This document shows positions 1-63,737 of a DNA stretch of 64,000 nucleotides, piece by piece. The stretch comes from Tetradesmus obliquus (lineage: Eukaryota > Chlorophyta > Chlorophyceae > Sphaeropleales > Scenedesmaceae). The DNA is taken from positions 2,046,001 through 2,110,000 of the forward strand of contig CP126193.1 in NCBI GenBank assembly GCA_030272155.1. Direction: 5' to 3'. Below the pieces are notes generated by a model that was given only the letters and a program-made list of their open reading frames with translations, searched no databases and was not told where the DNA came from. Every line of letters begins with the position of its first letter. Position 1 is the first letter of the stretch. The position numbers and the translations under genes are program-made.

Positions 1-257
1 TTAGCAGCATACCAGCAGCCGCCCAAGGTCCATGGTGCCCACGCAGAGCAGCTCAGCAGTGCACCTCTTTTACTGCAGCCTGCCTTGAGCTACTGCAGTG
101 CACCTCTTTTACTGCAGCCTGCCTTGAGCTACTGCAGTGCACACGCACAAGGAAGCACCGGCACCGGCAGCAGCGTAAGAAACAGTGCAACAAACGTTTT
201 GGTCTGCTGCCAGGCCACACTCCACGTACTTCATACATCACCATGCTACCTTCTCCG

Positions 258-300
<43 letters not shown>

Positions 301-585
301 CCACGTGACTGTTGAGAAGTACCTTGAGGCCGAGGGCCTGCCCTACACCGTGTTCCAGCCGCTGTACATCTACGGCCCACACACCGCCAAGGACTGCGAG
401 CAGTGGTTTGTGGACCGCATCATCAGGTGGGGCTGGCACAGCAGCAGCAGCAGCAGCAGAACAGCAGCAGCAGCAGCAGCAGCAGCAGGAGGGTTTATAT
501 GGGACAGCATCATCAGGCTATCACAGCAGTGATTCGTGGACCGCATCATCAGGTGGGGCTGGCACAGCAGCAGCAGCAGCAGCAG

Positions 586-620
<35 letters not shown>

Positions 621-924
621 GGTTTATATGGGACAGCATCATCAGGCTATCACAGCAGTGATTCGTGGACCGCATCATTAGGTGAGGCTGGCACAGCAGC
701 AGCAGCAGCGGCAGGGTTATATGGGACAGCATCATCAGGTTATCACAACAGTGGTTCGATGACCGCGTCATCAGGTGGGGCTGGCAGCAGCAGCAGCAGC
801 AGAACAGCAGCAGCAGCAGCAGCAGGGTTATATGGGACAGCATCACCAGGCTATCACAGCAGTGATTCGTGGACCGTGTCATTAGGTGAGGCTGGCAGCA
901 GCAGCTGAACAGCAGCAGCAGCAG

Positions 925-959
<35 letters not shown>

Positions 960-1843: not shown

Positions 1844-1877
<34 letters not shown>

Positions 1878-2871
1878 CATCGCCAAGGCTGTGGGCAAGG
1901 CGCTGGGCAAGGAGCCGCGCATCGTGCTGTACAGCCCAGAGGAGGTCGGCACAGGCAAGAGCGGCAAGGCGGAGGGCTTCCCCTTCAGGTGAGCAAACAT
2001 TGTTAATTGGTGTGCTGTTGAGGACCTGTTCCGCAGGTTGGTGGATTGTTGTTAGTCCCAGCGGTGTTGCGGTGGTTTGCACAGGCAAGTGCGGCAAGGC
2101 GGAGGGCTCCCCCTTCAGGTGAGGTGGCTGGGGCTCTTGGATTATGTCAAGCTGGAGTTATGGGTGCAATGAACAGTGGATTGGAGTGATGGTGGTGTTT
2201 GAAGTTCATGGACAGGGACAAGAGCGGCAAGGCGGAGGGCTCCCCCTTCAGGTGAGGGCGACTCAAGATGAAGACCTCTTCAGGCTGGTGGTTTGTTTGC
2301 AACTGCCGTGCTGGTTGTCATGCCGCTGGAGTGTGTGCGGATTGAGTTGTTCAACCTGCCCAGGCAATGGTGCGCTGATGGTTGCCATGGGCTTTGCATC
2401 ATGACCTCAGGAAGCCGTCGCGCGCCTTGTACAATAATGGTGAATTGACACAACACAATCCAGTTGAAGTTTTGAAGCAGCATTAGAAAATGTAATCCAA
2501 TGCCAAAAGTAGAAGTTCAACCAAGAAGCAGACCCCCTCCGCAGCCCCAACACCAGCCACCTGCTACGGCCTCACTCTGGCCAAGGCGGTCTCCAAGCAA
2601 CAAGCAGCTCTATGACGTATGCTAACCCTGCGCTTAACACTGTGCTCAACACACATGTGTCAAACTGAAGTTGCCTTTGTAACGCAGGACCATCCACTTC
2701 TGCGCATCATCAGACAAGGCCAAGCGCGAGCTGGGCTGGAAGCCCAAGCACACTTTCCTGGAGGATGTGCCGGCGCTGGTGCGCGATTACACAGCAGCAG
2801 GGCGGCAGCACAAGGACGTGGACTTCTCGGTGGATGACAAGATCCTGTCTGCGATGCGCGTGTACGCGTGA
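1..2871 (+). CDS. CSP41a: CSP41a-like chloroplast stem-loop RNA-binding protein (3' part of gene)
   Basis: The 5' end is outside the window. Exons by splice motif are 1-58, 300-426, 1573-1727, 1877-1988 and 2688-2871. All junction phases agree, giving 211 residues plus TGA. Visible blocks are GHVTVEKYLEAEGLPYT, YGPHTAKDCEQWFVDRIIR, DRPVPIPTPGVQLVTLSHV, YNICSDRQIS, RELGWKPK and a C-terminal VDFSVDDKILSAMRVYA. These match the C-terminal half of the CSP41 family: an atypical short-chain dehydrogenase/epimerase fold that binds and cleaves chloroplast RNA and associates with plastid ribosomes. The NCSDR-like block and the DDKIL tail favour CSP41a over CSP41b. The N-terminal Rossmann half and transit peptide are not visible. 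Nearly every exon edge in this gene has extra copies in the adjacent intron (see the repeat entries). I chose the third copy of exon 3 because only it continues into conserved sequence and a donor. Confidence 0.85.
56..142 (+). repeat. 39-bp tandem repeat over the exon 1 donor of CSP41a
   Basis: Units at 56-94 and 95-133 plus a partial third. Each starts with GCAGTGCAC, so the exon-end/GT donor context of base 58/59 is repeated twice inside the intron. Confidence 0.8.
408..1160 (+). repeat. Donor-side exon-edge echo array of CSP41a exon 2
   Basis: The real exon end plus donor (GACCGCATCATCAG/GTGGGG) is at about 412-432. Degenerate copies follow near 536, 664, 757, 866, 992 and, weakly, 1109, separated by CAG runs and a GGTTTATATGGGACAGCATC block. 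Spacing varies from roughly 95 to 130 bp, mostly because the CAG runs differ in length. Some copies have lost the ideal donor (ATTAGGTGAG). Confidence 0.85.
1294..1630 (+). repeat. Acceptor-side exon-edge echoes of CSP41a exon 3
   Basis: Three copies of TTGCAG/GGACCGCCCCGTGCC start at 1294, 1437 and 1573, each with its own pyrimidine tract and AG. The first two keep about 45-60 bases of exon sequence and then decay. The third is the functional exon. Confidence 0.88.
1950..2257 (+). repeat. Donor-side echoes of CSP41a exon 4
   Basis: The exon end AAGGCGGAGGGCTTCCCCTT plus CAG/GTGAG (ending 1988) recurs at about 2079-2122 and 2212-2255, each followed by a good GTGAG donor. Splicing at either copy would change the transcript. 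Confidence 0.85.
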
Positions 2872-3040
2872 ACATGAAGTTCGTGCAAAAGATCACAGCA
2901 GCGGCAGTGGGAAGTTCGTACTGGGAAGTGCACGGATGTCCGAGAGTGTGCAGCAGGGCGGCAGCATAAGGACGTGGACTTCTCGGTCGACGACAAGATC
3001 CTGTCTGCGATGCGCGTGTACGCGTGAACATGAAGTTCAC
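2785..3040 (+). repeat. Tandem duplication of the CSP41a terminal coding segment
   Basis: The last about 90 bases of coding sequence through the TGA and ACATGAAGTTC are repeated about 156 bp downstream (about 2945-3037). The second copy lies in the 3' UTR and still encodes DFSVDDKILSAMRVYA plus TGA. Confidence 0.85.
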
Positions 3041-3579
3041 GGCAGTGGCAGTGGGAAGTTCACGGCAGGGGCAGTTGGAAGTTCACAGCAGGGGCAGTGG
3101 GGATTTCATAGGGACATGCACACCAGCTTGCAGCATACTGTTGTGCTCAGTCTGGTGTATGCGGAGGTGCCTGGTTTGATGCGCGAGAGCAGGAGGTGTC
3201 TGCATAATCGGCTGCTTGCAGCAGCATGCAGATGCTAGTAGCACATGCATGGCTGCACCAGAACGCAGCTGTGCACAGCAGAGTGCTTCGCAGTTGCGAG
3301 AACTGCCTGAATTCTGGCTTTCATGCAGCTCTGCGCAGCAAAGCTCTCTACCAGCAGCAGCATGGATCTTCATACTAAGTATGCCGATGCAGCGGTGACT
3401 TGCTGCAGTATGCTTGGTGTGGCTGGCCCAGATCCACTGCTAGAAGTGCTAGCCCTCCCCTCAGAGGGCAGCAGGCGCTCACAGTGGCAGTCCTACATTG
3501 ACTGAGCGTTGACTGAGCGACTGAGCGATTGCATTTGGTGGCAACCAAGAAATGCATGCATGCAAACAGGCGACACAGA

Positions 3580-3584
3580 TGTAA
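3580..3584 (+). terminator. TGTAA poly(A) signal for CSP41a
   Basis: I see no other TGTAA between the stop codon (2871) and this site. TGTAA is the known chlorophyte polyadenylation motif. Confidence 0.5.
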
Positions 3585-3895
3585 CACGACGAATTCATGC
3601 GTCTCCAGGATGTCGAGGGACCGTGGGTAATTGCATGTGTGGGTAGGCAGCAGCCGCTACAGCATGCAGCTCAAGCACACATGGGGGCTTGCTTGGTATC
3701 GGTAGCTAGTGCAGCCGCTGCACTCGGAGTTGCAGAAGAGATTGGACCAAAAATATACTTACGCAGAGCGCGGGGCGGGTAGACTGGATAGACGGCCACT
3801 CATGAGACGTGCACGGCAGTGGCGGTTGCTGCTGGCGTGTCTGCTGCTGAGCCTGCAGCAACCTTTTATGCGTCAGAGTCTGGTACTTGCTGGTG

Positions 3896-7594: not shown

Positions 7595-10500
7595 TCACAG
7601 CGCCTTCGCCTTGCCAGGCATTGCTGCGCCGCACGCATCATCATACTCCGCCGGCTCATCGACTGAGCAGCGCCGGCTGCCCGGCGCAGAGCCACCCACA
7701 AACGCCGCTCTCTCGTCAGCCTCCCAAAAGTACAGCAGCACTGTTGGCGCAACGCAGCCCACGCACAGCTGCAGCAGCAGCTCCCACAGCCATGGACCAG
7801 GAGATCCGGCAGCAGCAGCAGCAGTGGCAGGGGCGGCTGCGCCGCTCCAGCACTGCCACAGCACGCCCAGGGTTGTCGCTGCTACGTTGAGGGTGAGCGT
7901 CAGCAGGTGCGTCTTGAAGCGACCCTGGCGGGCAACCACAGGCCGGCAGGCAGCAGAGCGGCAAGATTGGAGTCAGAACCATGCATCCATGCAACCAGTC
8001 CCAGTTGCCCTAGGTGTTCTGCAAGAGGCATTGTGCTGCGCCACAACATGCTGATGGAAACTTTGGAAGCTCCATGCAGCTGCATGAGATACAACAGCAG
8101 AGGCTGTGACCAGCAGCCAAGCACGCGTCGCTGCTGATCACTAGCAAATGCTTCCCAAAGCTACAGCAACGCACATACGATTCGTGACACCCAACCAGAG
8201 CTGCAGCCCACTGACCTTGAAGCCAAGGCTCTCAACCAGCATGGCAAGTGCGCGCCTGCGCAGCATGCCAGCAGCGCTCTGATGCATGCGCAGCAAACCC
8301 TCAGCAGCAGCGCCAGCTGCCGCCATACCAGCCGCTGCACCAGGCAGCTGCCACCGCTGCTGCAGCATGACTAGCCCGATCACGCCTGCAGTGTGTGCAG
8401 CAGCGAGCACGCGATGCACAGCCCACACTGCCTCCCGTCGCCTGCAGTAGCTGCGCGGCTGCAGCAGCATCCAGCAACCGGCTACAGCTGGCACCAGCCA
8501 ATGCCCTACGCTGAGCAGCAGCTGCTGCTGCAGGCCCTGCGCGCTGCTGCCGTACGCTGCTGCTGCAAGCAGCAGCAGCGTTACAGCCACAAACACACCA
8601 TCCATGTGCGCCCACTGCTCCACCTGGCTGGCAACGTAACGGCCCTCCAACTCCGCATCTTTAAACTGCAGGTTTGGCTGCATCGCGCTGCTGGCGCTGC
8701 GTTCACCCTCGCTGTCAAGCCATGCATGCTGCTTTGCATGCTTGCTGCCGCTGCTCAAGCCGTATGCAGAGGGTGCCAGCTGGCCAAACTGCTGCTGCTG
8801 CTGCATGGCTGCTGGCTGGTCATCAGGTGACAGGTGCGCCACTGGGAGGTCATGCTGGGCACCTTTGCGCGCTGCTGCCGCTGCTGCTGCTGCGGTGCCT
8901 GCCTGCATGCCGGGTGGGCCATCTGCCGCCTGCAGGAACACACAGCAGCACATGCGACTGCGTGTCAGGACTACCCACGACATGTGGATGCAGTGCCATC
9001 GATGCCAGCGCCACACAGCAACAGCAACAAGCTCAAAGCACCATTTGCAGAGCCGCTCTTGACACATGTGCATACATGTTGTGGTTACCAAAACACTGCC
9101 GGGCGCCGAAAGCCATTGCCTGCCTCCTCGCTGCCTACCTCCCCACTGCTGCGCCGCACACGCCTGCGCTCACCTGCCCCAGCCACCTGTGCATGAACTT
9201 TGTGCCAGCAAAACACATCGGTGTGCTAAATCCCACTGCCTACATCCCAACTGCTGGGCCGCACATGCCTGGTCTCACCGGCCCCAGCCACCTGTGCAGC
9301 AGCACCTCGTGCCAGCAAAACACAGCGGTGTGCTAAATCCCACTGCCTACATCCCAACTGCTGGGCCGCACATGCCTGGTCTCACCGGCCCCAGCCACCT
9401 GTGCAGCAGCACCTCTTGCCAGCAAAACACAGCGGTGTGCCAAATCCCACTGCCTACATCCCCATTGCTGCACCACACACGCCTGTCTCACCTGCCCCAG
9501 CCACCTGTGCAGCAGCACCTCGTGCCAGCCAAACGCAGCGGTGTGCCACATCCCACTGCCTACATCCCCACTGCTGCACTTCACACGCCTGGTCTCACCT
9601 GCCCCAGCCACCTGTGCAGCAGCACCTCGTGCCCGCCGCAGAGCAGCTTGCAGGATGGCGCAAACTGGGCTGTCTCCAGCCCCAGCAGGCTCAGCACCGG
9701 GTCGGACACCTGGATGCTGTTGGGGCTGCAGAAGCGGTCCATGTCCAGCAGGTCCTGCACGTCGCTGCCAAAAACCCTGCAGGAGATTCAGTCACACACA
9801 TACAATTGAGTGAGGCAAATTGGGTGTAGGTTGCGGCAGCAGAAGGCATGGACGCATCCCCACCGGATGCGATGCCAGATGCACAACAAAAGAGAAACTA
9901 GCAAGAGAGCCGACGCAAGCAACACAGCGGGAACTGTGAAGATCAAGGACCCGCAGCTGCTGCATTCTGTTGCTGCTGCTGTTGCTGTGCGTGCTGCTGC
10001 GGGTGCTCACTCGAAGGTCCAGGAGCCCTTGCCCACCACGCCGCCTGCATACTTGCCGGCGTGAATGGTGATCTGGGTGGCCAGCGCATCACCGCCTGGC
10101 AGTGACGCCTGCAGGGGCACAGCAGGCAACAGTGTGCAGGGAGCAACGTGGTGAGTCCTGCGAGTCATTTGCTGTACATCGCACTGCATGGCGTTGCAGG
10201 AGTGTCCGCATGGCACCATGCAGACAGCAGCGTGCAGTTGCCAAGATGTTGATGCCAACAATGCAGCTAAGGTGGGTGATATGGCCGCTGCTATCCCTGT
10301 CTGATGCGTTCTTCTGCACCCTGCTTCAAAGAAGCTGTGCAGCAGGCTCGATGCCAGCCTGCGGCGCCCACCTCTGCGAGTATGCTGCTCAGGCGCTTGG
10401 CAGCGGTGAACATGACGCCTGCCTGCTGCTTGGCTGGCATCTCTGGCGTGCTGGCAAACATGCAGCAGGGGCCCAGCATCCTTATTTTGTATAGGCCCAG

Positions 10501-11080
10501 CGCAGCTGCCACGTCATCGATCTTGCATTGCACGCTGTGGCTCCAAAACAGCAGCTCCTTCGGGGTGGCCTGCAGGACACAAAGATGCTGTTTCAGTGGA
10601 CTCCGTACGCCAGTCAAACTCGCATGAGGTTACACTGGCTTGCAGGCAAAGAATGCAGGTCGTTACCGCCTTGCAGCAACAGCAGCTACCTGCGGACTGA
10701 TATCAGTCCAGGCAGTAGCCAGGCCTGCAGCAGCCTGCCTGAGCCAGCAACATCTGCTGTGCTGCAGGCATGCTGCGAAGCCTGCAGCTGCACCCCGCAC
10801 CTGCTTGCAAGCCATTCGGTGATTTCCCAGCGACATGAACATCAGCGGGTGGTGGGTGAACAGCTCCACATACGGAGGCTGCCCAGCATCCACGTCCAGT
10901 ATCTGCTCCATCCTTGGCAGCAGCGGGCTGCCAGCTACTGTAACGGTCGCTAACACGCTTTGCAGACGGCCTGATGCATCCAGGCTGAACAACGTTATGT
11001 GGTAGCGGCCACACAGCCAAAGCTCTTCGCGAACAGGTCACCCCTCGGCCTCAGCTCCACGGTCGATGCAGGGTCCCTTT
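7595..11080 (-). CDS. Membrane protein with degenerate class III nucleotide cyclase domain
   Basis: Exons, 5' to 3': roughly 11010-10801 (start unresolved), 10569-10372, 10108-10011, 9776-9599, 8929-8216 and 7924-7595. Phases agree from the first donor onward. The block RMACKQATPKELLF, ALGLYKIRMLGPCCMFAS, ITIHAGKYAGGVVGKGSWTF, EVFGSDVQDLLDMDRFC, PNSIQVSDPVLSLLG follows the order of a guanylyl/adenylyl cyclase catalytic domain (CKQ, GVYKIxTIGDCY, xIHTGxVVAGVVG, FGDTVNTASRM, IQVS). The metal-binding Asp of the GDC motif is Pro (GPCC), and the region expected to hold the D-IVGFT motif reads THHPLMFMSL, so catalysis is unlikely. A Q/A-rich linker is followed by about five hydrophobic segments (for example VFVAVTLLLLAAAAYG and ELLLQLCVGCVAPTVLLYF). 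The likely role is as a regulatory or decaying homologue. A possible 2-bp frameshift lies near 11010-11015. Confidence 0.6.
9181..9640 (-). repeat. Donor-side echo array of the cyclase-like gene (about 108-bp units)
   Basis: On the minus strand the exon end GAGGTGCTGCTGCACAGGTG + GCTGGGGCAG/GTGAG (real donor at 9598) recurs near 9500, 9390 and 9280, and in decayed form near 9185. The array lies inside the following intron. The units also share a CACTGCCTACATCCC block on the plus strand. Confidence 0.87.
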
Positions 11081-11089
11081 GACCTTATA

Positions 11090-12885: not shown

Positions 12886-12955
<70 letters not shown>

Positions 12956-14285: not shown

Positions 14286-17200
14286 ATGCCGTCTGACCGC
14301 AAGGCAAAGCAGAAGGATGCCAAGGTACTGCTTCAAGTGGTGTACTCTAGAGTGTGACACCTTGAGCGAGTTATGCCTCCCCTGCATCTGAAGTGATTCT
14401 TGTGCAATGCAGAAGGCAGGCACAGCCCGGCCTAAGCCCAAAGCCGGCAGCTCGCCAGCAGCAGCAACAGCGGCTAACACAGCAAATGAAGCAAGCTGCA
14501 AGGCAAGTCCACCTAGCGAAAGCTGGCCAACCTGTTTGAACGATAGTCATGATAGCACCTACAGCACCTGGCAGAAACTACTGGGCACTCCTCAAGCAGA
14601 TGTCATTCGCTGTCTTGGCATCAGCCACGTGCATTAATTCTCTCAAACCTTCAAGCCCTGCAAGCAAAAACTGCAACAGCAACAGCAGCAGTCACTGCCG
14701 CAGCAGCTTAGCTCGCTCTGCCGCACCTTGTCAACACAAACATCATGTCTGCCGGCTGCCCCTACTGCTGCATTAGTTGGCCTTCCAAGGCCTGACCCCC
14801 AGGCAGCGTGCAGTACTGCACCAGGTGGCGGAGCAGTGTGGGCTGGGCCATGGCAGCTCAGGGGAAGGGGAACAGCGCTGCATCAGCATCGGGGCAACAG
14901 ACAGCAACGCGCCACAGGTGAGCAGGCATTACCACATATACATCTCCTGCAAGGCAGTATCATAGTACTGCATGCTCAACTTCAGTGCACATGAGAGTGT
15001 GTTCTGCACTCGATCATGCCCGGAGGTTGACGATTTCAGCCGCATCCTGCAAAAGCTTGTGATGCACTGGATGAATTGCGTGTAACACGTCAGCACCTGG
15101 CATGTTCCTAGTGGTTCCCCAGCTGCGTTGTGCCTTGCCTGCTTCTTGTCGGTAGCTGTCTTGCAACAAGCTTTGCAAATCATTGCTTGCTGATCATCCT
15201 GACGTCATTCACTGCAGCGTCTCCTGCAATGCAATGCACTGCCCTGCTGGGACTGCAGATTGACATTGCAGCAGCCGAGCTGTCAGATGAGGCCATTGCT
15301 GCACTGCTGCAGCAGCACCTGCAGCTTCAGCCAGACCTCTACCTCTCAGCAGCACAGCAGCCACGACCAAACTCAACAGCAAGCAGCAGTAACGGTAAAC
15401 CGCCCGCTCGGAGCAAGGCAGCCAGCGGCAAAGCGGCAGCAGCAGGCAGCAGTGTGCGATATGCGTCAGTGGATGCTTTTGTAGCACAGATGAGCAGGCT
15501 GCTGGATATGGAGCGGCAGGCAGAGGTGGCAGCTGCACAAGAGGCAGCAACACAATGCAGCACGGCTGCAGCACAGGTAAAAGGTGCTGCCTTCCCTATG
15601 CTATCTGTCATGTGTTGTTGTGCACGGGCAGCTTGCATGGGTGAAACAGGGTTGCAGAGTGCTGCTCTGTAGGTTTTGGCTTGAACAGGAGAAACATTAA
15701 ACATGTGGTGGTATTGGCAGCGGTGATGGCAGCATGGAATTCATACAAGGCTAGAAGTGCCAGAAGCTGAAAAAGGTGCAGTGGCAGCGGTCTCGTTGCA
15801 TTGGCAGCAGGCACCAGCGCTTGTCAGTGTTATTATGCTCCACCAGCACGCAATCGATGAGCATGCCAGCCCTGGCATATTCCAACACTTCTGCCTGACC
15901 AACTGCCGTCTGTTCCACAGGCGCGTGGCCGCACCCTGCTGAACCTGCGGGTCAGTGATGCAGAGGGCGGTTTACTCGGCAGAACCCTGCTGACGCTGGT
16001 GCCCAACAAGGGCTTCGGCACAACACCTGCTGTGCCGCTGCCCGCCCACAAGTTCAGCCCGCATGATGTTGTGGCGCTGAAGGCATCAAGCGCTGGTCTG
16101 GGGGGTCCTCCGCTGTGCACTGGCCTGGTGTACAGGTGGGTGGATTATTCCCTGTTCACTTCAGTCACATGATGTTGTGGCACTGAAAACGTCCAGCGCG
16201 GGCCTAGGGGGTCCTGCCCTGTGCAGTGGCCTGGTGCACAGGTGGGCTAGATGTGCCCAGCGGCCTGTGTGCTTTTATGCGCGCATGTTTATGTACATGT
16301 CTATATAACCCTAGCAGTTGCCTGTGTGCTATCGCACCATGCTGACAACAACCCTTACTCTCTCTAGACACAGCACCGCATGCGCCTGCCGTTTTCCGCG
16401 CTAGTTGATGCTACGGGCTGCCCGTGCCTGATGTTGCTGCAAGGTGCAGTTGTTGCTGGTGGTGACGGTTGGCAAACGTGCCTGCATGCATTCTCACTTG
16501 ACATATCGGCTTCTGCCTGATGTTACATCAATGTTTTTGCTACATCTCAACCTTGTGCAGGGTGCGCGATGCGTCGCTGGTGGTGGCAGTTGATGACCCG
16601 CCTGAGGAGGGGCTGGAGCAGCCACTGCGCCTGGAGAAGCTGGCCAACGAGGTGGGGGGGTGGGGGGGGGGCAAGGTGGCGCGGATGGGGTGGGGGGGGG
16701 GGGTTGGCGGGGGGTGGGGGGGTGGGGGGTGGCAGCCATTGCTGCTGGTGGGGGTAGTGGTGTGTACTGCGCATGGAGAAGCTGGCCAACGAGGTGGGTG
16801 GGGGGGGGCAAGGTGGCGCGGATGGGGTGGGGGGGGTGGGGGTGGGGGGGGGGGGCGGGGGGGGGGGGGGGGCAGCCATTGCTGCTGGTGGGGGTAGTGG
16901 TGTGTACTGCGCCCGGAGAAGCTGGCCAACGAGGTGGGGTGGGTGGGGTGGCTGGGGCGGGTGAGGTGGGTGGGGTGGGTGGGGAGGAGCGTCCCTGTGG
17001 CTAGAGACGCTGGCGAGGTGGGGGGCCTGCAGCCATGGCTGCTGATGTGAGGCAGTAACACAGCGGGGTATGCACACACACATGACCTTGCACGTGCACT
17101 CCTGCACATCTTGCAGCTGGCCAACTCAAAGCAAGTCTGGAGGTGCGTACGGCGGCGCACTGACAACTGAAGAACTGAACACACACTGCTCACCACAGTC

Positions 17201-20200
17201 ATCACTATGTTTGGACCAGCCTGCAGCGATTTGTCAGTTGCCATCCCGACCCCAGGGACAATGTGCGCCTCCCTGATTACAAGCTGTCTGCTGCTGCTCA
17301 CAGGTCACCTACAAGCGCTTGCAGGACACGCTGCAGCAGCTGTCAGCGCCAGGCAACAGCAGCCGCGCTGAGCTGCTGCCAGGCATGGCCCTACTGGATG
17401 CAACGTTTGACCGCAGGGAGCCTCGCTTTGCAGCAGCAGCGCCGGCCTGGAAGCCAGTCAACGCTCGGCTGGATGACTCGCAGCGGCGAGCAGTGGACCT
17501 TGCGCTGCGTGCGCAAGATGTGGCGTTGATACATGGGCCGCCGGGTGAGCTTGTGCTGCTGCTGCCGTGGGAGCACATGACAGGGTTTGGGCGCACGCCA
17601 TACATCTAAGCCAGCAATGCATGCTATTTGTCTCTATTTTGACAGTAAACAACCAGCTGAGATATTTCCATGGCATGTCGCTTTCTGCCTTTGCAGGCAC
17701 AGGCAAGACCACTGCTGTTGTGGAGGTCATCCTGCAGGAGGTTGCGCGAGGCAGCCGCGTCATTGCAGCAGCAGCGTCAAACATTGCAGTGGACAACTTG
17801 GTGGAGCGCCTGGCAGCAGCAGCGCCAAAGCTGAAGCTTGTGCGGCTGGGGCACCCCGCGCGCCTGCTGCCGCAGGTAACGCACATGCAGTGCTTGCTCA
17901 CTTATCGTTGCATGGAGGCACGCGTGATGCACATTGAGTTAACACCGTGTGCTAGCAGCACACCTTCTTCTCACCCCTGCTTCTGCACACCACTCTGTAA
18001 CTTTGACCGGTGGTTGGTTCTGCTGCTGCTGCTGCCGCCGCTGCTGCTGCTGCTGCTGGCGCTGCTGCTGCCAGGTGATCGACAAGAGCTTGGAGGCTCA
18101 GGTGCTGCGCAGCGACAACAGCAGCCTCGCGCGCGACTGCAGGCGCGACATGCAGCAGCTCAACAGGCGCGTCATGCGAGGGGCTGTTTTGTCGGGAACT
18201 GTCGCATTGCTGCAACATGCGCATGAAGATGCTGCTATTAGTCAATGGTGTAGCCGGTACAGCCCTATCTTTGAAAAGGGCTCCGCCTTGCACCCGCACG
18301 CTGCAGCAACAGCAAATACAGTGGAGGTACCCTAACCAATCGGTCATTTGGCCAGGGTGCTGTGCTGAGGTGTGCGTCGTGACTGCTGCAGGTATTTTTC
18401 AGGCTCGAACCAGTAGGAACAATTGAACTGAATGTTAAGCAGCTTGCACCCAGTCAAAATATACTTCTGTATTTCAAACTTGTGGCTGCTGCTGCAGGCA
18501 GCTGCTGAAGCTGGAGCCCTGGAAGCGTGCTGAGCGGCGCCAAGTGCGCGCTGAGCTGCGGCAGCTTGCGAAAGAGGAGCGGCAGCGGCAGCAGAAGGCA
18601 CTGCAGGTACGGCACGGCATGCGCCAGGGTTGTTGGAGGCTGCTGAGGCATCCTGTGGGCATGTGGTTACAGAGTTGTATTGCGCAACATTCTTAAGACC
18701 TTGATGCTGGTGTAGGTGCTTGCTGTTGTGTCAATTGCAGTACAGAAGCAGGGAAACATCATGGCGCCCCATCTTGGTGGGGGTTGCTTCAACCGCCTAT
18801 GTGTTTTGCTTCAACCGCCTAACTGTGTCTGTGCATCTTGTGGGAAGTGCTGCATGGCCAGGCTTTGGTGTGTTGCGCCAAATGCCTGATTGCCTTGCTG
18901 CTTACTTGTTGCACTTGCAGGAAGTGCTGGATGGTGCGCAAGTCATGTGCTGCACGCTGACTGGCGCGCTGCACCCGCAGCTGCATGGCCAGACCTTTGA
19001 TGTGGCAGTTATTGATGAGGCTGCTCAGGCGCTGGAGGCGGCCTGCTGGAGTGCCCTGCTGAAAGCCAGGAGGGCAGTGCTGGCAGGTGTGCACTGGTGT
19101 GCACACGAGCAACACATGCATGAGGCAGGAATCTTGGCAGTGATGACAGCAAACCTGGCAAAAAGGACTTGCTGGTTGTGATGCCAGCCTACCGCTAGTG
19201 AGCTGCTTTTGCTGCTTGTTGCCTTTGATCAATGGTGTGGTTGCAGTGGCTAGCAAGCAGCAAGGCGATCAGGCATTTGAAGCAACACACCAAAGTGGGG
19301 CCAACCAGCACTTCCCGCAAAATGCACGGATCCAGCGACAAGTACGCAGCAAGGCAATCAGGCATGTGAAGCAACACACTAAAATGGGACCATGCAGTAC
19401 TTTCTGTGTACTGTTCACAGAGAGTTTGCATATAGCATGCAAGCATGTAGACATCCTGAGCACTTGCGAACGAAATTTGCGTCGAAATAATCAACTTGGC
19501 AGGACTTGAAAAGACAAAGCGCTACTGTGTGTGGACCCGGCTTCAGCACCGGCCCCTGATCACTGGCATACCTGCCTGTGCTGCCCAGTCCCTCACACCA
19601 GCTGTGCTGCATGCCTTCACTCATCACATGCCTGTGCTGCCTAGTCCCTCACAACAGCTGTGTGCTGCACGCCTGCATTGCTGGCCTCTTGTGGCTGCTG
19701 CCATACTGTTGACATACACTGCCAGGTGACCACTTGCAGCTGCCTCCCACTGTGATGAGTGAGGCAGCAGCCAAGGCAGGGCTGTCAGCCACGCTGTTTG
19801 AGAGGCTGCAGGGCAGCCTGGGTCCTGCGGCCAGCTGCATGCTGACTGTGCAGTACCGCATGCATGCTGCCATCATGGATTGGTCGAGCCAGGAGCTGTA
19901 TGGGGTGAGCTGTGCCAGGCTGCTGCTGCCGTAAAATGACAGTTTTAGGCATGGTAAAAGCACAACCGCTGCTGTAGCTTAGCTGCAAGCTTTGGTGATC
20001 AATGCTGTGTTGAACACATGCTACGGCCCTTTTGCAGAATCCTGCATCACACAGATGCGCCCTGCGTCCATTTTTGCGCTCTCAGCTAAGTGTTCAAGGT
20101 GCGGCGCAGATGTGCAGGCATGCCGACCCAGCTTGAGTACTCAACGTCAGTCATGCGTCATTTGCCGCGTGTGTTTGCTGTGTGTTGCAGGGCCAGCTAG

Positions 20201-37411: not shown

Positions 37412-40400
37412 TGTTGTTGCCCTGCGAGCCCGTTGCATCTGTTGAGGGCGGCTGCTGTCACTTCAACCAGCGCCAGCAGCCCCGGCATGCAGCCGCGCTG
37501 CCATTTCAGCGCTGCGTGCGGCTGCGGCTGGGACTCAAGGTAACCCTGGCGGGTGCGCAGCACCTGCACAGCAGCAGCAGCAGCAGCAGCAGCTGTGACT
37601 GGTGACTGGTGACTGTACATGCAGGGTCGGCATCAGTAGCAATTTTGTGTGCCGCCCAGCGAGCAACACCTGCTGTGCCACTGGAGGACCGCGGGTAGGC
37701 GCAAACCTCACACGACATACCTCAGGTATGAAACCTGCATTGGTAGCTGACACAACAGATCCAGATCCATGCACCAACACATCTGCGATCCAATGGTACA
37801 GCGCCTGCCAGCTACCCGCACACTTGCTGCGTCACACACACAACCGGACCCACCTTGCACAAGCCACTCAGCATGTCAGCCAGCCTGGCAGGTCCTGAGG
37901 GAACCTGCCCAGCCAGCACACACCCCACCCGCACCAGCAGCGCAGCCCCTGCCGTGACACTGCAGGACCGCAGGCAGGCTCAAGCCTCATCGACATACCC
38001 CTGCCATGGTTGCTGACACACACAAAAACCAGAATGCACCAACACATCTGCAAATCAGCCCAATAGCAGCACCTGCCAGCTACCCGCACACTTGCTGCGT
38101 CACACACACAACCGCACCCACCTTGCACAAGCCACTCAGCATGTCAGCCAGCCTGGCAGGCCCTGAGGGAACCTGCCCAGCCAGCACACACCCCACCCGC
38201 ACCAGCAGCGCACCCCGCAACTGCCCAGCCACATCACCCTCCAGCTGCTGCTGCACAGCATCCAGCCACTGCAGATCAAGCAGATCTGCAGTAGCAGGGT
38301 GCATTGCCAGTAGACAGCTCAGCTGCAGCGCAGCGCGCCTAAACTGACGGTACGGCAAGTCAAACAGTGTGCGGATCCACAGCTGTAGCAGCCACTCTGC
38401 AGGCATGCAGCGCAGTGGCGCAGCGCTAGCACTTGGTTGTGCGCTGTAGCGCTGCGCGCCTGCTGCTGCACCTGCTGCTAGCTGCCACTGCAGCAGCGAG
38501 GGCGCATGCCGGATCATTTCGCGAGCAGCACTCAATACCATACAGCGTTGAATTGGGCAATCGTGGAACTCAAAGAAGTTCATCAAGCTGGCGGCTGGCG
38601 CCAGCAGCTGCGCCTCCAATGTTTGCCAAGTCACAGCGCCGGACTGCAGCTGCAGCGCATACACTGCTGCCAGCGCCTCCACCTTGCTCGCCCCGAGCTG
38701 CTGGCTGTGCTTGCGCAGGTGCTCCTGCTGCTGCAGGGCCTGCTGCTGCTCGGTTGCTGCTGCTGCAGGGCCTGCGCCGAGTGATTTGCCTAGCCACCCC
38801 TGCTGCTGCGGCTGCCACAAGATCGGCCGCTGCTGCTGCTGCTGCTGCTGCTGGATGTTAGGCACCTGCTGCAGCTGATCTGCTGCTGCTGCTGGCGGCT
38901 GCAGTTGGGGCGTCAGTGTCTCCCTGACCCAGTTTTGCCGTTGGCAGTAGTCAGCAGCAACAAGCTGCTCCAGGTGCAGCAGTACATGCTGCTGTACAGC
39001 CTGCTGCACCTGCTGCACCTCTGCAAGCCGATCTGCTGCTGGCAGCTGGCTATACAGCACCTGCTGCAACATGTGCAGCTGCACATTGCCATCGTGCTGC
39101 TGCTGCTGCTGCCAGTGCGGCTGCTGCTGCTGTTCAAAGAGCTGGCGCAGCTGCTGGGCGTCCTGCACTGGCCAGTCTGCGTATTGCAAGTCTGGCGCTG
39201 CCTGCCGGATGAGTGCTGTGATGGCTTTGAGTGCATTCTCGCGAGCCTGCAAGGCAGCAGGCACAGGAGAAGCATGCGGCCAGACACAAGATGGGTTGAC
39301 ATGAAGCACTTGATAGGCAGCTCAATCAAGCCCTTGCACAGCGCACAACCACAAACCAACCCCTACAGCACAACATTCCAGGACTCCAGCTCTAGATGTT
39401 ATCTCTCACCTTGGCTGTCCAGTCCACCTGAGGGTCAAGCAGTGCCCCCGGCCGGCAGGCAGCACACGACCCAACACAACCCCTACAGCACACCAATTGC
39501 AAACTGTTATGTCTTAGCTGTTGTGCGCCTTACCTTTGCTGTCCAGTCCACATCAGGGTCAAGCAGCTGCTGCAGCTGCCTGTAGCACGCGACCCGACAC
39601 CCCCCCTACAGCACACCATTTGCAAACTGTAATGTCTCAGCTGTTGTGTACCTCACCTTGGCTGTCCAGTCACCTCAGGTAAGGCAGGGCCCGCAGGTGC
39701 AGACAGCACACACCACAAACAACCCCTACAGCACAACATTCTACAACATTCCAGAACTCCAGCTGTCATTGTTATCTCTATTCTGTCTCCGCTGTAGTGT
39801 CTCACCTTGGCTGTCCAGTCCACCTCAGGGTCAAGCAGCGCCCCCGGCTGCAGGCAGCACTCGACCCAACACAACCCCTACAGCGCAACATCTGTTGTGT
39901 CTCCGCTGTCGTGTCTCACCTTGGCTGTCCAGTCCACCTCAGTATTCAGCAGCTGGGACAGCTGCAGCCAGCACACAACCCGACGCAACCCCTACAGCAC
40001 AACATTCCATACTCCAGCTGTTGTGTCTCACTGTCTCACCTTGGCTGTCCGGTCCACCTCCGCGGCACGCAGCGCCCCCAGCTGCATGCGACAAACACAA
40101 CCCTACAGCAAAACAATTCATAACCAATATGACCAGCTGTTGTGTGCCTTACCTTGGCTGTCCAGTGCACCTGAGGGTCGAGCAGTGCCCCCGGCCGGCA
40201 GGCAGCACACGACAGAATACCACGCCTACAGCACACCATTCCAGGACTCCAGCTGTAATTGTTGTCTCTCACCTTGGCTGTCCAGTGCATCTGAGGGTCG
40301 AGCAGTGCCCCCGGCCGGCAGGCAGCACACGACAGAATACCACCCCTACAGCACACCAATCCAGGACTCCAGCTGCAATTGTCATCTCTCACCTTGGCTG

Positions 40401-41613
40401 TCCAGTGCACCTCAGGGTCAAGCAATGCCCCCAGGCGCAGGCAGCACACGAACAAATACAACCCCTTCAGCACACCATTTGCAAACTGTTATGTCTCAGC
40501 TGTTGTGTGCCTTACCTTGGCTGTCCAGTCCACCTCAGGGTCAAGCAGCTGCCCCAGCTGCAGCCAGCACACAACCACAAACAACCACTACAGCACACCA
40601 TCCTTTGGAGGCTGAACTCTAGCTGTTGCGTCTCACCTTCACTGTCCAGTCCACCTCAGGGTCAAGCAGCGCACCCAGCTGCGCCCCCTGCAGCAGCGCG
40701 GCCGCAACGCACCGCGGCAGCCGCCGAGCCTTGGCCGCCAGCAGCAGCAGCAGCTGCTGCAGCGCCTTGCAGTCTGCTGCTGCCAGCGCTTGCAGCTGCG
40801 TCTGCCGCTGCTCGCGCTCCAGCTTCTGCTGCTGCTCCTGCAGCTGCCGGCTGGCACGTGCTGCTGCCAGGTCGTGCGCGGCGGCTGGCTGTGGCGGGCT
40901 GTGGGCGGCTGGCCAGCGAATGGGCCCCACAGAGATGGGCTGCAGTTGCAGTTGCACACATGACAAATACTGTGTCCAGTTCATGTGGTTTTATGAATGT
41001 TAATGATTGTTGTGGGACAAGGGAGCTTCAGAAGAAGCACGCTGGAGGGCGGCTGACCACCAACAAACATGGACGCAGTAGAAACGCAACGGCTAGTAGT
41101 CTGAATCAAAGGGAAGGTCATCTGCTGCCGGTTGAGGGTGCACAAGAATCTGTTGATGATGACGTTGATGCGCTATCGCTGCACTCATGTGTGGCATACA
41201 CAGTATGATGCACAGGCATTTGCAAGAGCACTCATCAAGGTTGATCCAGTTGATCCAGGTTGGCATAACTGTCGTTCAACACACGGCCTCACCCCCAGCA
41301 AGTCTTCAGGCGTGCGCAGCCAGCGCTGCAGTGCCTTCATCTCAGCAGATAGCTGCCCCACCAGACCCAGCAGGCTTTGCACAAGCTCCAGCATGCATTC
41401 CTGCGCGTTGCCAACAGCGGAAAGCGCCTCATGCGCTGCCTGCTGCACTGCTGCTGCTGCTGTGGCTGCTGCAGGGGCCTGGCCGGTGTGTGGATGTGCA
41501 GTGTGCTGCTGAGCATGCGCTGCTGCTGCTGCTGCTGCCAGGGCCTCTTCTGGGCTGGCTCGCTGTGCCAGTGTGTCTAGCAGCTTGATGTGGGCAAGCA
41601 GCAGCATCGACCT

Positions 41614-41661: not shown

Positions 41662-42784
41662 AGCAGGACGGCACAGGTGCTGGGGTGAAGTGCAGAGCAA
41701 GCATGGGTGGCATCGAGCAGCACCAAAGCGCTCATCAGTATGCAGGCATACGCCAACATGGTCAACAGGCACTTCGATCAATCGCCCAAAGTGGTCAAGC
41801 CCGAGCTATTTGAAAAGAGCATGAAAGGGGTTCATAGCAAGGGCCCGAAGCACATCACTGCTGCACAACGCAACGCCAGCAGGCTGGCCTGAACATCTTT
41901 TGTACCTGGCTTAGGGCTCGAAGCACATCACTGATGCACAAAAGCACCTCCATCTGGCTGGCCCGAACATGCTTCGCACCTGGCCTGAGGGTCGCTGCAG
42001 CCGAAGTCCAGGAACGTCTCCTTGCCCCGCAGCCGTTGCACCACGTCAAGCACGGCAGCATGCTGCGGCAGCGGCACCAGTTCCGCCACCAGCTGCAGCA
42101 GGCTCAGCGCGGCCCGCAGCACCTCGTGGCTGCCGCTGCACGCTGTTGCATAGAGGTAGGGCAAATACAATGCAAACAGGCAGCAAGCTTAAGCAGCAGC
42201 ATCATGATCAAGTAGGATGCAGCAACGCGTGGCTGCCGCTGCACACTGCTGTGCAGCAGTTGAAACATGCATTGTAAAGCAGGCAGGCAGCAGACCTTAT
42301 GCAGCAGCATGGTGAGTGAATTGGTTGCAGCGGCCGTGCAGGTACAGTCAGCGGTGCCGACTGCACCTTGACGCTGTTTGGAAGTCAGGCATGCTCAATG
42401 CACGATGCACTGCGTGCATCGCTGGATTATGTGCAGCATCCCAAAGCACTGACACTTGTTACATTCTTTAACAACATTCAAATTTACCAAAAGCAGCAAA
42501 GCCTCACCTTCAAACAGGTGGTTCACCACCATATCCACATCCCAGTCGCTGCCGCAAAAGGCCTCCATCAAAGCGCGCTCACACTCCCTCGCCACAGCTT
42601 CAGACCCGTACCCAGCATACTGTGCATTTCCGCCGCGCTGGCACCGCCGCACCAGCTGCTGCCACAGCTGCAGGGTGCGGATGTGCTGCGCTAGCACGGA
42701 GGGCAGCAGGTCCTGGGGGGCAAGCTCAGACGTGGGAGGCGCGGAGGCTGCCATGCAGGCAGCTGCGCCATAGAGCGTTGGAGA

Positions 42785-53773: not shown

Positions 53774-53808
<35 letters not shown>

Positions 53809-53823
53809 GGAGGCGGCGGGTAG

Positions 53824-53870
<47 letters not shown>

Positions 53871-54632: not shown

Positions 54633-54668
<36 letters not shown>

Positions 54669-58773: not shown

Positions 58774-58778
58774 TTACA
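58774..58778 (-). terminator. TGTAA (TTACA on +) poly(A) signal of the GH5 gene
   Basis: About 58 bases past the proposed stop at 58836. Confidence 0.5.
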
Positions 58779-58835
58779 GACCAGGTGTCACGCTGAATAT
58801 AGAAACATGCCTTGCTCACCACGTTGCTGTGCTGA

Positions 58836-60999
58836 TCAGCACTTCTGTCTGTGTGCATCGGTGCAAGCCAAGCCTAGCACATGCAAGACTGCTGCAGCGT
58901 GTATCGCTTGTAGCTGAACACAGAAAACAGCAGCAGCAGTAGCAGCAGCAGCAGCAGCTCTCACCTCCGGCCACCAGCCGCAGTACCATGGGCGCAGCCC
59001 AAAGATGCGTATGAGCACGCGGACCTTGGTCCACTGCACCTCGCGCCACGTGGTGTTGGGGCCCACCAGGCCCTTGGTGTCACCTGCAAGGGGGTAGCAC
59101 AAAGCATGTGAGCACAGTCATCAGCGCTGATGAATATGCATGAGAGTGGAAGCACTGCAGCCACAGCATGGCGCAGAGCAGCAAACACAGCTTGCTTGGT
59201 GCTGAAGAATTAATTGGTGGGCAGCCGCCCAGCCACATGTATCAGCTCTTCACTGCACACATACGCCTGGCCAGAACACCAAGGCCCCACCCAAGAACTG
59301 CCTGCAAACATGCCTCACCTGTTTTTTTTTTGGGTTACCAGGGGGGACGGAATCCTACTGGCTCGCTACCACAGCACAACTGGGCAAGCCCAACTGCCGG
59401 GAGCGGGAGGCAGTGCCTCACCTGAGTTGGCGTTCCAGGCCCACCAGAACCATGAGGGCTGCCTGCCTGTCTTTTCACTCAGCGCGCGCAGGTAGCTGGC
59501 CACGATGTTGAGCCACAGCTTGTCTGCCTCCGTGTACAGCGTGGTGTCGGTGTTGTTGCGGCTGTTGTCGCCCCAGTCCTTGGCGCCAGACTCGCCGATG
59601 ACCACCGGCAGCGGCGGGATGCGCGCACCCTGCAGACGCAGCAGAAGCAGAAGCAGCAGCAATGTTCAGCAGTTGTTTGAGCCACCAACGAAACAAAGAC
59701 GGAAAACCTTTTGTTTACGCTGCCTGCTGTGACGCGACAGCGTTGTGCAGCCGCAAGCCTTGCCAACAGGCTGGCGACAGCTGTCCAGGCTTGATGCGCT
59801 GCTGATACTGTTACACCAATGTCTTGCGACAATGCTAGATGTAGATGTTATGTAACATGTCATGTTACTCACGGATGACGTGGAGTCCAGGCCCTGCATC
59901 TTCCAGCCCCAGCTCTGGTCCCATCTGTAGGTCACTGCGTCCACGCTGGCTGTGAGCTTGCTGATGTCACCAGTGACGGTGCCGGGGTAGATGTGGGGCG
60001 ACAGTACCAGCCGTGACATCTGCAGGACATGTTATAACATTGTCATAACAGTGTCACATGTCATGCCATGTGTCAAGACATCATCAGCAGGACAAAAGCA
60101 GCAAATCAACATCTGCATTGCTCCTAGAAGGTGTAAGCAGCACTGCTGGAAGCACAGCTTTCATAACACAGCAGCAGCAGCCAGCAGCAGCAGCAGCCAG
60201 CAGCAGCAGCAGCAGCAGCAGCCAGCCCACCTGTGACTCGCCATGCTCCACGCGCACAAAGCCAAACTTTTGTGTGAAGGCGGTGGTGAACATGTCGCTG
60301 GGGTCGCTGAGGCCGTACTTCTGGATGGCTGCCTTGTTAGTGATAAAGCCATCACCCCAATGCATGCCAGGATAGGGGTTGCCGCACTGGTCATATTTGG
60401 TGCTGTTGTCCTGGCCCAGGCCTGCGGTGACAGAAGCAGTGGCAGCAGCAGCTGAGTTGTGTTTTTGGTGCTGTTGCAAGCGAGCAGGTTGTACCACATG
60501 CTGCACTACAGCATGTGCAGCAGCAGCGCCTGCATACTCCCTGCAAGCTGTTTCACCCTCTGGATTGCATTCGCTGCAAGACACTGAGCAGCCCTGTTGG
60601 CACCCCGAAGCATGACGGTATACGTAACAACAATGTAACATTGTAACAATGCCGTCGCCCACCGTTGATGAAGATGGCCACATCAGGGTCCGACTGCCAG
60701 ATCGCTGCCGCTGCGAGGCCGTAGCTGTGCAGGATGGGTGCACATGCATTGGTGCCGTTCACCTCGTGGCATGAGTCCTGCCACTGGCAGCCCCAGCGGC
60801 TGCAGACAACGAAATGCAGCAGCAAAAGCAGATTGTCAGACGATTGTAAACCAGATGTGGCACGAGTCCTGCCACTGGCAACCCCAACGGCTGCACACAA
60901 TGAGAGCAGCAGTGAAACTGAATGTCAAACAGGTGAGGAAAACGATTGTAAACCAAAGTGTGGCAGGAGTCCTGCCACTGGCAGCCCCAGCGGCTGAAG

Positions 61000-61040
<41 letters not shown>

Positions 61041-62948
61041 GCAGCAGCGTGTGCATGTGGTCAGTGTACACTACGTAACAGTTGGCGGTGCAGCTTGGTG
61101 GGACGCATCATTTGCTGGGTCCGTGGCCGTGATCCAGAACTGGCTGCAGATGCACCGCCTCCCATGTCACCCAAAACAGGCAGGCGCATCATGTGCTCCT
61201 TGTGCCTATGGCACGACACCTGCTCATACGTGGCACACCATGTGACAGTGGTCAAAGTAACAACCCACGCACCTGGGCTCGTTGACCAGGTCTGGGAAGA
61301 TGCGCCCTGCCAGCTGCTGCTTGTAGGCCGGAATATCTGTCAGTATCTTCCAGAAGTTGCCCCAGTTCTGCGCCAGCACCGCGGGGTTCTGCATGTTGAT
61401 CTCGCTGTCTCGCGTGCTGCTGAAATCAAGCAGCACGTACAGGCCCTGGCTTACCAGGTACTGCACCTGCCACAGGAACCTGCGGTGGCGGCAGCATAGG
61501 ATGGCAGCAGTTGAATGAGATGGGGTGGAAGTGACTTGAGGTTTGTCAACAGTTGGATTAGACTAAGGATTGTGATTGATTTGAAATGAAAGTGGTGTGG
61601 TAGGTAATCAAGGTAGTGGTAGTGCTTGTGGGTGAGAAATGCGCTGTGCATAAGGCAGCAACACACAGGAGCCAAGCAGAGCCTCCATGCTGAGCACACA
61701 CCGCCACTTGATGCCAGGCAATGCTAAGCATTCTTATAACCAACAGCACCACATAGCTCAAGCAACAGCATAAGCGGGCAGCTGGCGCACCTGTACAGCG
61801 CGGGCACGTTGGGCCCCTGGGGCAGGTACCAGTTGCACATGGTCAGGTTCAAAGTTTTGCCGCTGCCGCCCTTGTAGCTGTCCAGGAAGGGCGCTGACCA
61901 GGGCCCGTCACACTGCAGCAGCAGCAGCAGCAGCAGCAGGTCTGAGCACGGACCTTATGTAATCTGGGGCACTAGCAGTACGACGGCTGCTGCGTGAGAC
62001 CAGCGTTGAGTACCAGACAACAGCTGCCACCAGCACACACGCATGATGCTGCTGCCATGCATCTCCATGCACAGCTTGCAGAACTGCAAACCAACCAGTG
62101 CCTGATAGGAGATTGCACCATGTTTGCCACCTGCATGATGCTTGTCATCGTAACCAAGTCATAACAATGTATAAATCAGCAGCTGTCGTTACCTGGGGGT
62201 TGCCTGTCTTGGGCGGCGGGTGCTGCATGCCCTTGTACTTTGGCAGGTATGGTGCAATGGCATCCAGGCTCCACTTGTCCCCGAGGCCCGCAATGAGCTG
62301 CGGGTCCATCGTCTTGTAGGCGCCGATGTACGCGTCAGAGTCCAGCTGCAGCAGCAGGCCCGGCATGCATTAAATGTGTGTTCAATGTGTGAGAGCCGGT
62401 GGTGGATTTGTGTTCAGTGTTTGAGGCGCCGATGTACGCGTCAGAGCCCAGCTGCAGCAGCAGGCATGGCATGAGTTCAAGGTGTGAGAGCAGGTGGTTC
62501 ACAGGTGTGAGGCGCCGATTTGGGCGTCAGAGTCCAGCTGCAGGTAACAACAACATGAGTTTTGGTACCCAAAGAGTACATTGGATATGTGTCAGGAGCA
62601 GGTGGGTGTTCTTGTGCAGGTGCATAACTATACTGTAACTGTCCTGTAACTATCCTCCCTAAAACATAAGATGCAGAGAGTAGAGCAGCAGGCATGGTGA
62701 GCATGGCAGAAGCAAGTCCACCATTGTTGCTGCTGGCAGACAGCGACACAGCAGCCACACAACACAGCACTGTCAGCAGCCACACCCCTAGGCCTCACCA
62801 GGCAGGGGAAGAACTCGGGATCCGAGCCAGTGGGTATGTCTAGGTTGAGGTCGCTGAACTTGAACTGCACGCGGATGGCGTTGAAGCCCAGCAGCTTGAT
62901 GCGGTGCACGATGGCCGCAAAATCGTTCGTCAGCCGCCGCTTGCCCCT

Positions 62949-62982
<34 letters not shown>

Positions 62983-63737
62983 GTGGTGACAGGTGAGTAG
63001 TAGCCACATGCGGTGCATGAAGGCCGCAAAGTCGTGCGTGAGCCGCCGCTTGCCGATGCAGGACAATGTGTGTGACAGCAAACAGATGCATCAGCACATG
63101 TTTGCAGGTCAGTGTGACAGCAGGCACACAATGACACGCCACACAAGGGAGTGGCAGCAATGCAGTGCCTGCCAGCTGTGCGGCGCAGCTGCCCTTCGTT
63201 GTTGGTTGCTAACATCTGCTGTTGAAATGCAGATGTGCCAAGCAATGCTCCTCCCTCAGCTCCTGCACAACTGCCACATTCATTCAACCCCGCATGCTGC
63301 ACGCAGCTGTCCCTCACCAGTAGGAGATGTTCAGTGCGCGCTGCCCTGCCTCCCCAACAGCAGGCGACCACTGCTTCTCCCACAGGTTCCCATAAGGCGG
63401 AATATCGCCATCTTGGGGGCAGGGTGGGTCGCTGTATGTAGTGTTGTCATCACAAAAGGCCCATTGGCCATCAAAATTGAATGACCCCACGCTCCAGCCA
63501 AACCAGTTCACGCCTCGTAGCACTGCGGGGCTGCCGGATTGCTGCTCTACGAGCTTGCCGCCAGGGGCGAGCTTCAGCGCCGGCGGCACCTGCAAACAAT
63601 AACCACAGGCATTGCATTGCACCGCTGTGTTATGTATGTTAATAAGATGCATGGTGTGGGCAGACGGCAGTGGTGACTTCTTTCATGCAACCCACACCCA
63701 GCTGCACCTCTGACACGCTGGCCAAAGGCACAACCCG

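What the first reader, a model, noticed from the sequence alone, without database searches (positions are those of the whole stretch)
1..63062. Exon-edge echoes as a general intron architecture
At least 13 introns in five genes (CSP41a, cyclase-like, helicase, giant CDCA7-like, GH5) carry repeated copies of the neighbouring exon edge with its splice site. Donor-side copies lie downstream of the real exon and acceptor-side copies upstream, as if tandem duplications always span the exon/intron junction. Periods cluster near 80-160 bp. ATP11, IFT20, the lipase and BUD22 show none that I noticed at exon edges. A possible mechanism is repeated slippage or repair across junctions. A consequence could be intron growth, junction drift and built-in alternative splice sites. 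I know of no standard annotation class for it.
Basis: partly seen in the sequence, partly recalled or inferred. Interest (0 to 1): 0.9.

Follow-up and report, generated by a model that had tools for sequence, protein, structure and literature searches.

The report
Exon-edge copies inside algal introns
In a freshwater green alga roughly one intron in four or five carries extra copies of the tip of the neighbouring exon, usually beside a splice site of its own, which seems to let introns grow without changing the protein and might reveal error-prone DNA repair at exon borders.

Summary
The window is Tetradesmus obliquus. Of 220 modelled introns (210 long enough to score), 60 hold an intronic copy of an exon edge that reaches the junction, 115 copies in all. 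Exon edges echo in the adjacent intron about 3.3 times as often as matched intron windows (47 vs 14 of 308 sides; bootstrap CI 2.2-5.8). In loci picked before any echo was seen it is 23 vs 6 of 196. Reverse complement: 0 of 338.

Plain tandem duplication does not fit. In 53 of 70 innermost copies the intron flanks show no significant similarity; pooled, the match stops at the exon border, yet the flank looks like a working splice site, acceptor tract included. Simulated random tandem duplication gives 7-10% such cases at copy identity 0.93 or more; observed 17 of 24.

Annotated proteins skip the copies at 8 of 9 echo introns checked; one has an echo-derived micro-exon. Echo introns are longer (437 vs 273 bp).

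Best guess, inferred: mis-joined repair between diverged alleles of a heterozygous diploid, anchored in the exon. A codon test that first seemed to support it failed after CpG correction.

The parts
   Evidence: self blastn 399-1485 vs 525-1622 and 1283-1348 vs 1562-1627 at 98.5%; TRF period 129; exons 214-426 and 1610-1727, which also places doubtful small exons between them
1989..2687 (+). intron of the same gene with two donor-side copies of the exon end (copies 2084-2123, 2219-2256)
   Evidence: 90.6% and 93.3% identity
8930..9598 (-). cyclase-like gene, donor-side array of 107-bp units (array 9131-9636)
   Evidence: Guanylate_cyc domain in the joined model
16136..16560 (+). helicase intron with donor-side copy 16207-16246
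   Evidence: 84.8%; AAA_11/AAA_12 domains
16652..17303 (+). helicase intron with two donor-side copies (16766-16798, 16906-16939); spacers also alike
39247..40636 (-). long intron with ten donor-side copies of the end of exon 40637-40939, about 120-bp units
42130..42507 (-). intron with an acceptor-side repeat (42219-42331 vs 42116-42223); weaker case
   Evidence: 71.1%
60800..61272 (-). GH5 intron with two acceptor-side copies (60960-60999, 60857-60895); another T. obliquus record has five extra residues here that fit a 15-nt echo-derived micro-exon
   Evidence: 95.0%; P0121
62346..62798 (-). GH5 intron with two acceptor-side copies (62510-62543, 62417-62457)
   Evidence: 91.2%
62947..63317 (-). 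GH5 intron with one acceptor-side copy (63022-63061)
   Evidence: 87.0%

Best explanation
Shown: about a fifth to a quarter of introns carry copies of the 30-50 bp exon edge, about 120 bp from the real junction, mostly abutting a splice site. Multi-copy arrays read X-y-X-y-X-R: X is the exon edge, the y spacers are often alike, and R, which follows the innermost copy, is not recognisably related to y in 25 of 27 multi-copy arrays. Annotated proteins use the outermost sites.

Inferred: R and its copy are the older intron end. A later event put a second exon edge, with the end of a different intron version (y), between it and the exon. The likeliest source of a different intron version is the other allele: T. 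obliquus is reported as a heterozygous diploid, and in paralogues here introns become unalignable while exons stay about 90% alike. A break near an exon edge would be repaired from the other allele. Synthesis would run out of the exon into the foreign intron for a short tract, fail to anneal back, and be joined by end joining. That leaves both intron ends and two exon edges, the protein unchanged and the intron about 120 bp longer. Further copies arise by ordinary repeat expansion, and the copies then decay.
For: Homology ends at the border: pooled over the 24 non-homologous innermost acceptor copies with edge identity 0.85 or more, positions -7 to -14 match at 0.17-0.38 against a generic 0.28-0.32 for two unrelated acceptors, while exon bases 2-12 match at 0.88-1.00; positions -5 and -6 are slightly above generic (0.62 vs 0.44, 0.54 vs 0.46). 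These copies have their own pyrimidine tract: 0.633 at -40..-11 against 0.657 at their real acceptors and 0.511 sixty bases upstream; profile over all 40 innermost acceptor copies; blind set n = 17, 0.649/0.673/0.488. Non-homologous innermost flank: 25 of 27 multi-copy and 28 of 43 single-copy arrays. Echo introns minus the arrays have median 230 bp, close to introns without echo at 273. Intron-internal repeats alone are rare: 6 of 220 introns, against 58 with a junction-spanning repeat. Paralogues: exons 0.97-0.99 with introns 0.78 and 0.91; exons 0.89-0.93 with introns whose local score (13) barely exceeds shuffled sequence (9-10). Between intronic copies whose spacers are alike (identity 0.77 or more, so chosen on the spacer), exon part 0.858 and spacer 0.825, 22 pairs in 8 introns: the copies look neutral now. 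Diploidy and extensive heterozygosity: Biondi 2024 as cited in PMC12636532 (passage seen); a 208-Mb assembly against about 109 Mb for another strain in PMC5552973 (whole text seen).
Against: No second haplotype could be read, so the donor allele was never seen. The excess of synonymous differences between exon and copy is largely a CpG effect: without CpG sites 0.064 at 0-fold and 0.114 at 4-fold sites, and it does not differ between pairs with and without homologous spacers (Fisher p = 0.56). The window GH5 model and the GH5 protein of another record differ at only 2 of 609 residues, so present alleles may be closer than the model needs. y and R keep a slight similarity above chance (z = 4.1 over 52 pairs, 12 pairs above z = 2). 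No convincing outside source for the flanks was found with 99 masked y and R queries against the loci held; the whole genome was not searched.
Confidence: 0.4

Rival explanations
1. Plain tandem duplications of about 120 bp fall anywhere; those across a junction stay recognisable because the exon half is frozen by selection while the spacers decay.
For: 17 of 70 innermost copies have homologous spacers and look like this; the potato RdRp case shows that a junction-crossing duplication can be tolerated (PMC4974935, abstract and passages); y and R keep a trace of similarity.
Against: Simulation gives an edge/window ratio of 0.86-1.14 against 3.3 observed, non-homologous spacers in 7-10% against 17 of 24 at identity 0.93 or more, and identity just outside the junction of 0.81-0.82 against 0.38. 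The simulation assumes one rate for copy and spacer and one event per intron.
Confidence: 0.18
2. Old duplications whose exon-edge copies and inner splice sites are kept by selection (decoy or alternative sites, micro-exons) or by gene conversion from the exon.
For: Copy-copy exon parts 0.851 identical against 0.662 for their spacers, 91 pairs of which 45 from one array; without that array 0.857 against 0.634, 46 pairs. The inner pyrimidine tract is kept. Copy-copy differences still favour degenerate sites without CpG (0.18 vs 0.093). One record has an echo-derived insert.
Against: Where copy spacers are alike, exon part and spacer have similar identity (0.858, 0.825). Inner sites score lower than real ones (3.74 vs 6.61; inner equal or better in 21 of 70). 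The unit length is not held to multiples of three (21/20/19 of 60). Annotated proteins skip the copies at 8 of 9 echo introns.
Confidence: 0.22
3. An RNA-based process (reverse splicing or reverse transcription followed by recombination) copies exon edges, since the border is respected closely.
For: Pooled homology stops at the exon border although the flanks are unrelated.
Against: Copies carry an intron-type splice site; none of the sequences I read joins two exons as spliced RNA would. No convincing outside source for y among the loci held; the whole genome was not searched.
Confidence: 0.08
4. Assembly or gene-model artefact.
For: Gene models are home-made and the finder inserts false mini-exons in arrays.
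Against: Family hits independent of the models already show repeated exon starts (chaperonin on C16; kinesin on C2). Annotated proteins confirm the junctions. The other GH5 record carries an echo-derived insert.
Confidence: 0.02

Closest known systems
Potato RdRp intron gain by a tandem duplication crossing an intron-exon boundary (PMC4974935; abstract and passages seen)
   Same: Duplication across an acceptor junction; former exon sequence becomes intronic; splicing signals inherited from the parental junction.
   Different: A single case that created a new intron, with the intron half duplicated too. Here the pattern is common, lengthens existing introns, and in most copies the intron half is unrelated.
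[quoted passage not shown] passages of PMC3443670)
   Same: Local direct duplication of exon sequence next to splice sites.
   Different: That model duplicates exon sequence to make a new intron; here exon edges beside splice sites are repeated inside an existing intron.
[quoted passage not shown]
   Same: Direct repeats and a repair origin.
   Different: Short direct repeats there; exon edges of tens of bases with a spliceable flank here.
Intronic minisatellites (general knowledge, recalled)
   Same: Arrays of about 100-150 bp units.
   Different: The phase here is set by the exon edge, and array ends lie at the exon border.

Membership tests
Tandem duplication crossing an exon/intron junction | Direct repeats containing both exon and intron sequence | tested here: inconclusive
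   Met in 17 of 70 innermost copies, no significant intron similarity in 53; simulation
Tandem duplication crossing an exon/intron junction | Protein unchanged because the outer sites are spliced | tested here: met
   8 of 9 echo introns and 9 of 9 other introns continuous in annotated proteins; the annotation itself may be predicted, no RNA data were seen
Rogers AGGT intron gain | A new intron where relatives have none | not tested
   No related genome could be read
Introner elements | A shared sequence family across genes | tested here: not met
   Edges against introns of other loci 0-0.4%. 99 masked y and R queries gave 40 forward and 3 reverse hits in the same locus and 29 labelled other (window minus-strand queries count there too); no common family was apparent
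DSB-repair intron gain with short direct repeats | Short direct repeats at the borders of the insert | tested here: not met
   Exon part median 41.5 bp, 5-95% 20-74, 60 first copies of at least 15 bp
Inter-allelic misrepair | y and R found as intron ends of two alleles | not testable with these tools
   Only one haplotype is held

The most novel reading that the evidence does not exclude
Heterozygosity itself makes introns grow. When exons are alike and introns are not, repair anchored in an exon copies a short tract of the other allele's intron and cannot anneal back, leaving a spare exon edge with a working splice site. Echoes would be a fossil record of recombination between diverged haplotypes, and a store of ready-made splice sites and micro-exons.
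Probability: 0.35. Interest if true: 0.85.

Novelty: new variant of a known kind. Interest (0 to 1): 0.62.

Why it matters
How introns lengthen and how new splice sites arise is mostly inferred from rare single cases. Here a common, countable process adds about 120 bp at exon borders, apparently without changing the protein. If echoes record misrepair between alleles, they would tie intron growth to heterozygosity, which can be tested with phased genomes. In practice, echoes mislead gene prediction: my finder added false mini-exons, and a public GH5 protein carries an insert that fits an echo-derived 15-nt exon.

Tried and rejected
Self-training of the gene finder drifted to micro-introns at first and was rebuilt with length and prior costs (54 of 58 family anchors recovered in frame).

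Mini-exon idea (copies flanked by splice sites on both sides): in the sequences that I read the outer ends of acceptor copies seldom show a donor; the few with a GT there were not tested statistically.

Coding constraint on the copies, or a fixed allelic offset: suggested, dropped after the CpG split and the pairwise comparison.

Source of the spacers: no convincing match in the loci held beyond one-period neighbours and low-complexity sequence (whose output was cut, and 43).

A negative correlation between exon part and spacer length is not used, because one is computed from the other. The 10-copy array 39247-40636 was left out of the innermost-copy, pairwise codon and spacer counts, of the junction profile and; it is in the main counts. 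Low-complexity seeds were left out. Copies over 30% mismatched, or below 0.72 identity, were set aside in the codon counts (22 of 114). In one search only introns whose joined peptide matched the protein over at least half its length were counted. One locus of an inverted gene pair (L052 with L055) was left out of the intron set; besides 58 junction-spanning and 6 internal-only introns, 12 more had other repeat pairs.

All ten paper searches, some on the organism and some on the pattern, listed no report of this pattern by title or start of abstract; the library holds open-licence papers only.
Full report
WHAT IT IS FROM. The window is positions 2,046,001-2,110,000 of contig C3 in a 104.66-Mb genome of 17 contigs. 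Chaperonin CCT-beta from this genome is 99% identical to a Tetradesmus obliquus protein (P0001), and GH5 from the window is 99% identical to another (P0121). A comparative paper lists T. obliquus GCA_030272155.1 with 104.70 Mb, 17 contigs and 56.5% GC (PMC12571836, passages seen).

GENE MODELS. No annotation was available, so I trained a small exon/intron finder on family-matched exons. It recovered 54 of 58 anchors in frame, with donors like CAG|GTGAG and acceptors like TGCAG|G. The set was 220 introns: 46 in the window and 174 in loci of kinases, carriers, chaperonins and one kinesin. Annotated proteins agree with the models at 8 of 8 chaperonin and 9 of 10 GH5 junctions that could be placed.

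THE OBSERVATION. Self-alignment finds a direct repeat across the junction in 58 of 220 introns and intron-internal repeats alone in 6. A seed search finds 115 copies that reach the junction, in 60 introns. Paired over 308 sides it is 47 against 14, and in loci taken blind 23 against 6 of 196. The nearest copy lies 77-204 bp from the junction, median 120.

ANATOMY. The identity profile is high over the last 20-30 exon bases, fades by about 55 bp into the exon, and drops at the splice motif. The splice dinucleotide is usually kept: GT in 52 of 57 donor copies, AG in 49 of the 58 acceptor copies (115 in all). Arrays have the form X-y-X-y-X-R. The y spacers are often alike, but the innermost X is followed by an R without significant similarity to y in 25 of 27 multi-copy arrays, and in 28 of 43 single-copy ones: 53 of 70 in all. 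In these, pooled, bases just outside the exon match about as well as any two splice sites of this genome would. Innermost acceptor copies nevertheless have a pyrimidine tract and A-depletion like real acceptors, and the signal is local (blind set). So two unrelated intron ends abut the same exon start.

NULL MODEL. I simulated one tandem duplication of about 122 bp per intron, placed at random in or across the intron, with the exon frozen and the rest decaying with indels. Exon edges were then detected about as often as intron windows (0.86-1.14). At copy identity 0.93 or more only 7-10% of copies lacked spacer homology, and identity just outside the junction was 0.81-0.82. Observed: 3.3, 17 of 24, and 0.38. 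In the blind loci 11 of 13 such copies lack spacer homology. Plain duplication with a frozen partner explains some copies (17 of 70) but not the class.

WHAT THE COPIES DO NOW. Between intronic copies whose spacers are alike, exon part and spacer have similar identity (0.858 and 0.825, 22 pairs in 8 introns, chosen on the spacer). Inner sites are weaker than real ones on average, and units do not keep frame. Annotated proteins skip the copies at 8 of 9 echo introns. The exception is P0121, with five extra residues, RWGCH, at the GH5 intron 60800-61272; they fit a 15-nt piece of the echo copy ended by an internal GT (the match was worked out by hand). That may be an annotation error or a real micro-exon. 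It resembles the potato case, in which a junction-crossing duplication made a new intron (PMC4974935, abstract and passages).

A TEST THAT FAILED. Copies differ from the exon mostly at synonymous sites, which looked like divergence under coding constraint before the copy became intronic. Much of this is CpG turnover: without CpG, 0-fold sites differ at 0.064 and 4-fold sites at 0.114, near what a neutral copy beside a constrained exon would give. The excess is the same with and without homologous spacers (Fisher p = 0.56). I therefore do not use it. A residual bias between copies (0.18 vs 0.093) could reflect copies taken from the exon at different times, or selection.

MECHANISM. The process must respect the exon border, bring in an unrelated but spliceable intron end, use one orientation, and move by about 120 bp. 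Recombination between alleles whose introns no longer align does this naturally, because exons are the only shared anchors. In paralogues here, exons 89-93% alike go with introns that barely align better than shuffled sequence. The species is reported as a diploid with extensive heterozygosity and one homozygous chromosome (Biondi 2024, cited in PMC12636532, passage seen), and one strain assembled to 208 Mb against about 109 Mb for another (PMC5552973, whole text). Against it, the window GH5 model and P0121 differ at only 2 of 609 residues, and I could not read the second haplotype. I put this at 0.4. Maintenance by selection or conversion (0.22) and plain duplication (0.18) are the main rivals.

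KNOWN OR NEW. Single junction-crossing duplications and intron gain by tandem duplication are known (PMC3443670, passages; PMC4974935). A wide excess of exon-edge copies with unrelated, spliceable flanks was not apparent in any of the ten search listings. I call it a new variant of a known kind.

LIMITS. Gene models are home-made; 50 of the 220 introns bridge predicted mini-exons. Copies within an intron and introns within a gene are not independent; the bootstrap over 52 loci addresses this for the main ratio only. The loci are a sample of about 0.3 Mb of one genome, so nothing here shows when or in which lineage the copies arose.

Noticed in passing
L069:5044-6078 (C2 kinesin gene): Seven head-to-tail copies (counted by eye) of the start of a kinesin exon, each preceded by a CTG-rich tract ending in CAG. 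They read as one open frame, so my gene finder took them as a single repetitive exon. None of the 83 protein hits at E <= 1e-120 is named T. obliquus.
   Followed up: partly
window 60800-61272; P0121: The GH5 protein of another T. obliquus record contains an extra RWGCH that fits an echo copy, i.e. a 15-nt micro-exon.
   Followed up: partly
window 37652-38216: 277-bp direct duplication at 84% identity that includes a predicted exon.
   Followed up: no
window 2794-3084: 156-bp repeat at 85% near the predicted end of the CSP41a-like gene.
   Followed up: no
L051/L054 and L052/L055 (C13, inverted, about 5 kb apart): Inverted carrier gene pair: exons 97-99% alike, introns 78% and 91%. Introns diverge faster than exons.
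   Followed up: yes
exon-edge copies, loci L009-L073 and window: Differences between exon and copy concentrate at CpG sites (0.405 at 4-fold CpG against 0.114 at 4-fold non-CpG), which hints at cytosine methylation.
   Followed up: partly
window 8216-14168: My model joins an ATP11 domain and a guanylate cyclase domain; these are probably two neighbouring genes.
   Followed up: no
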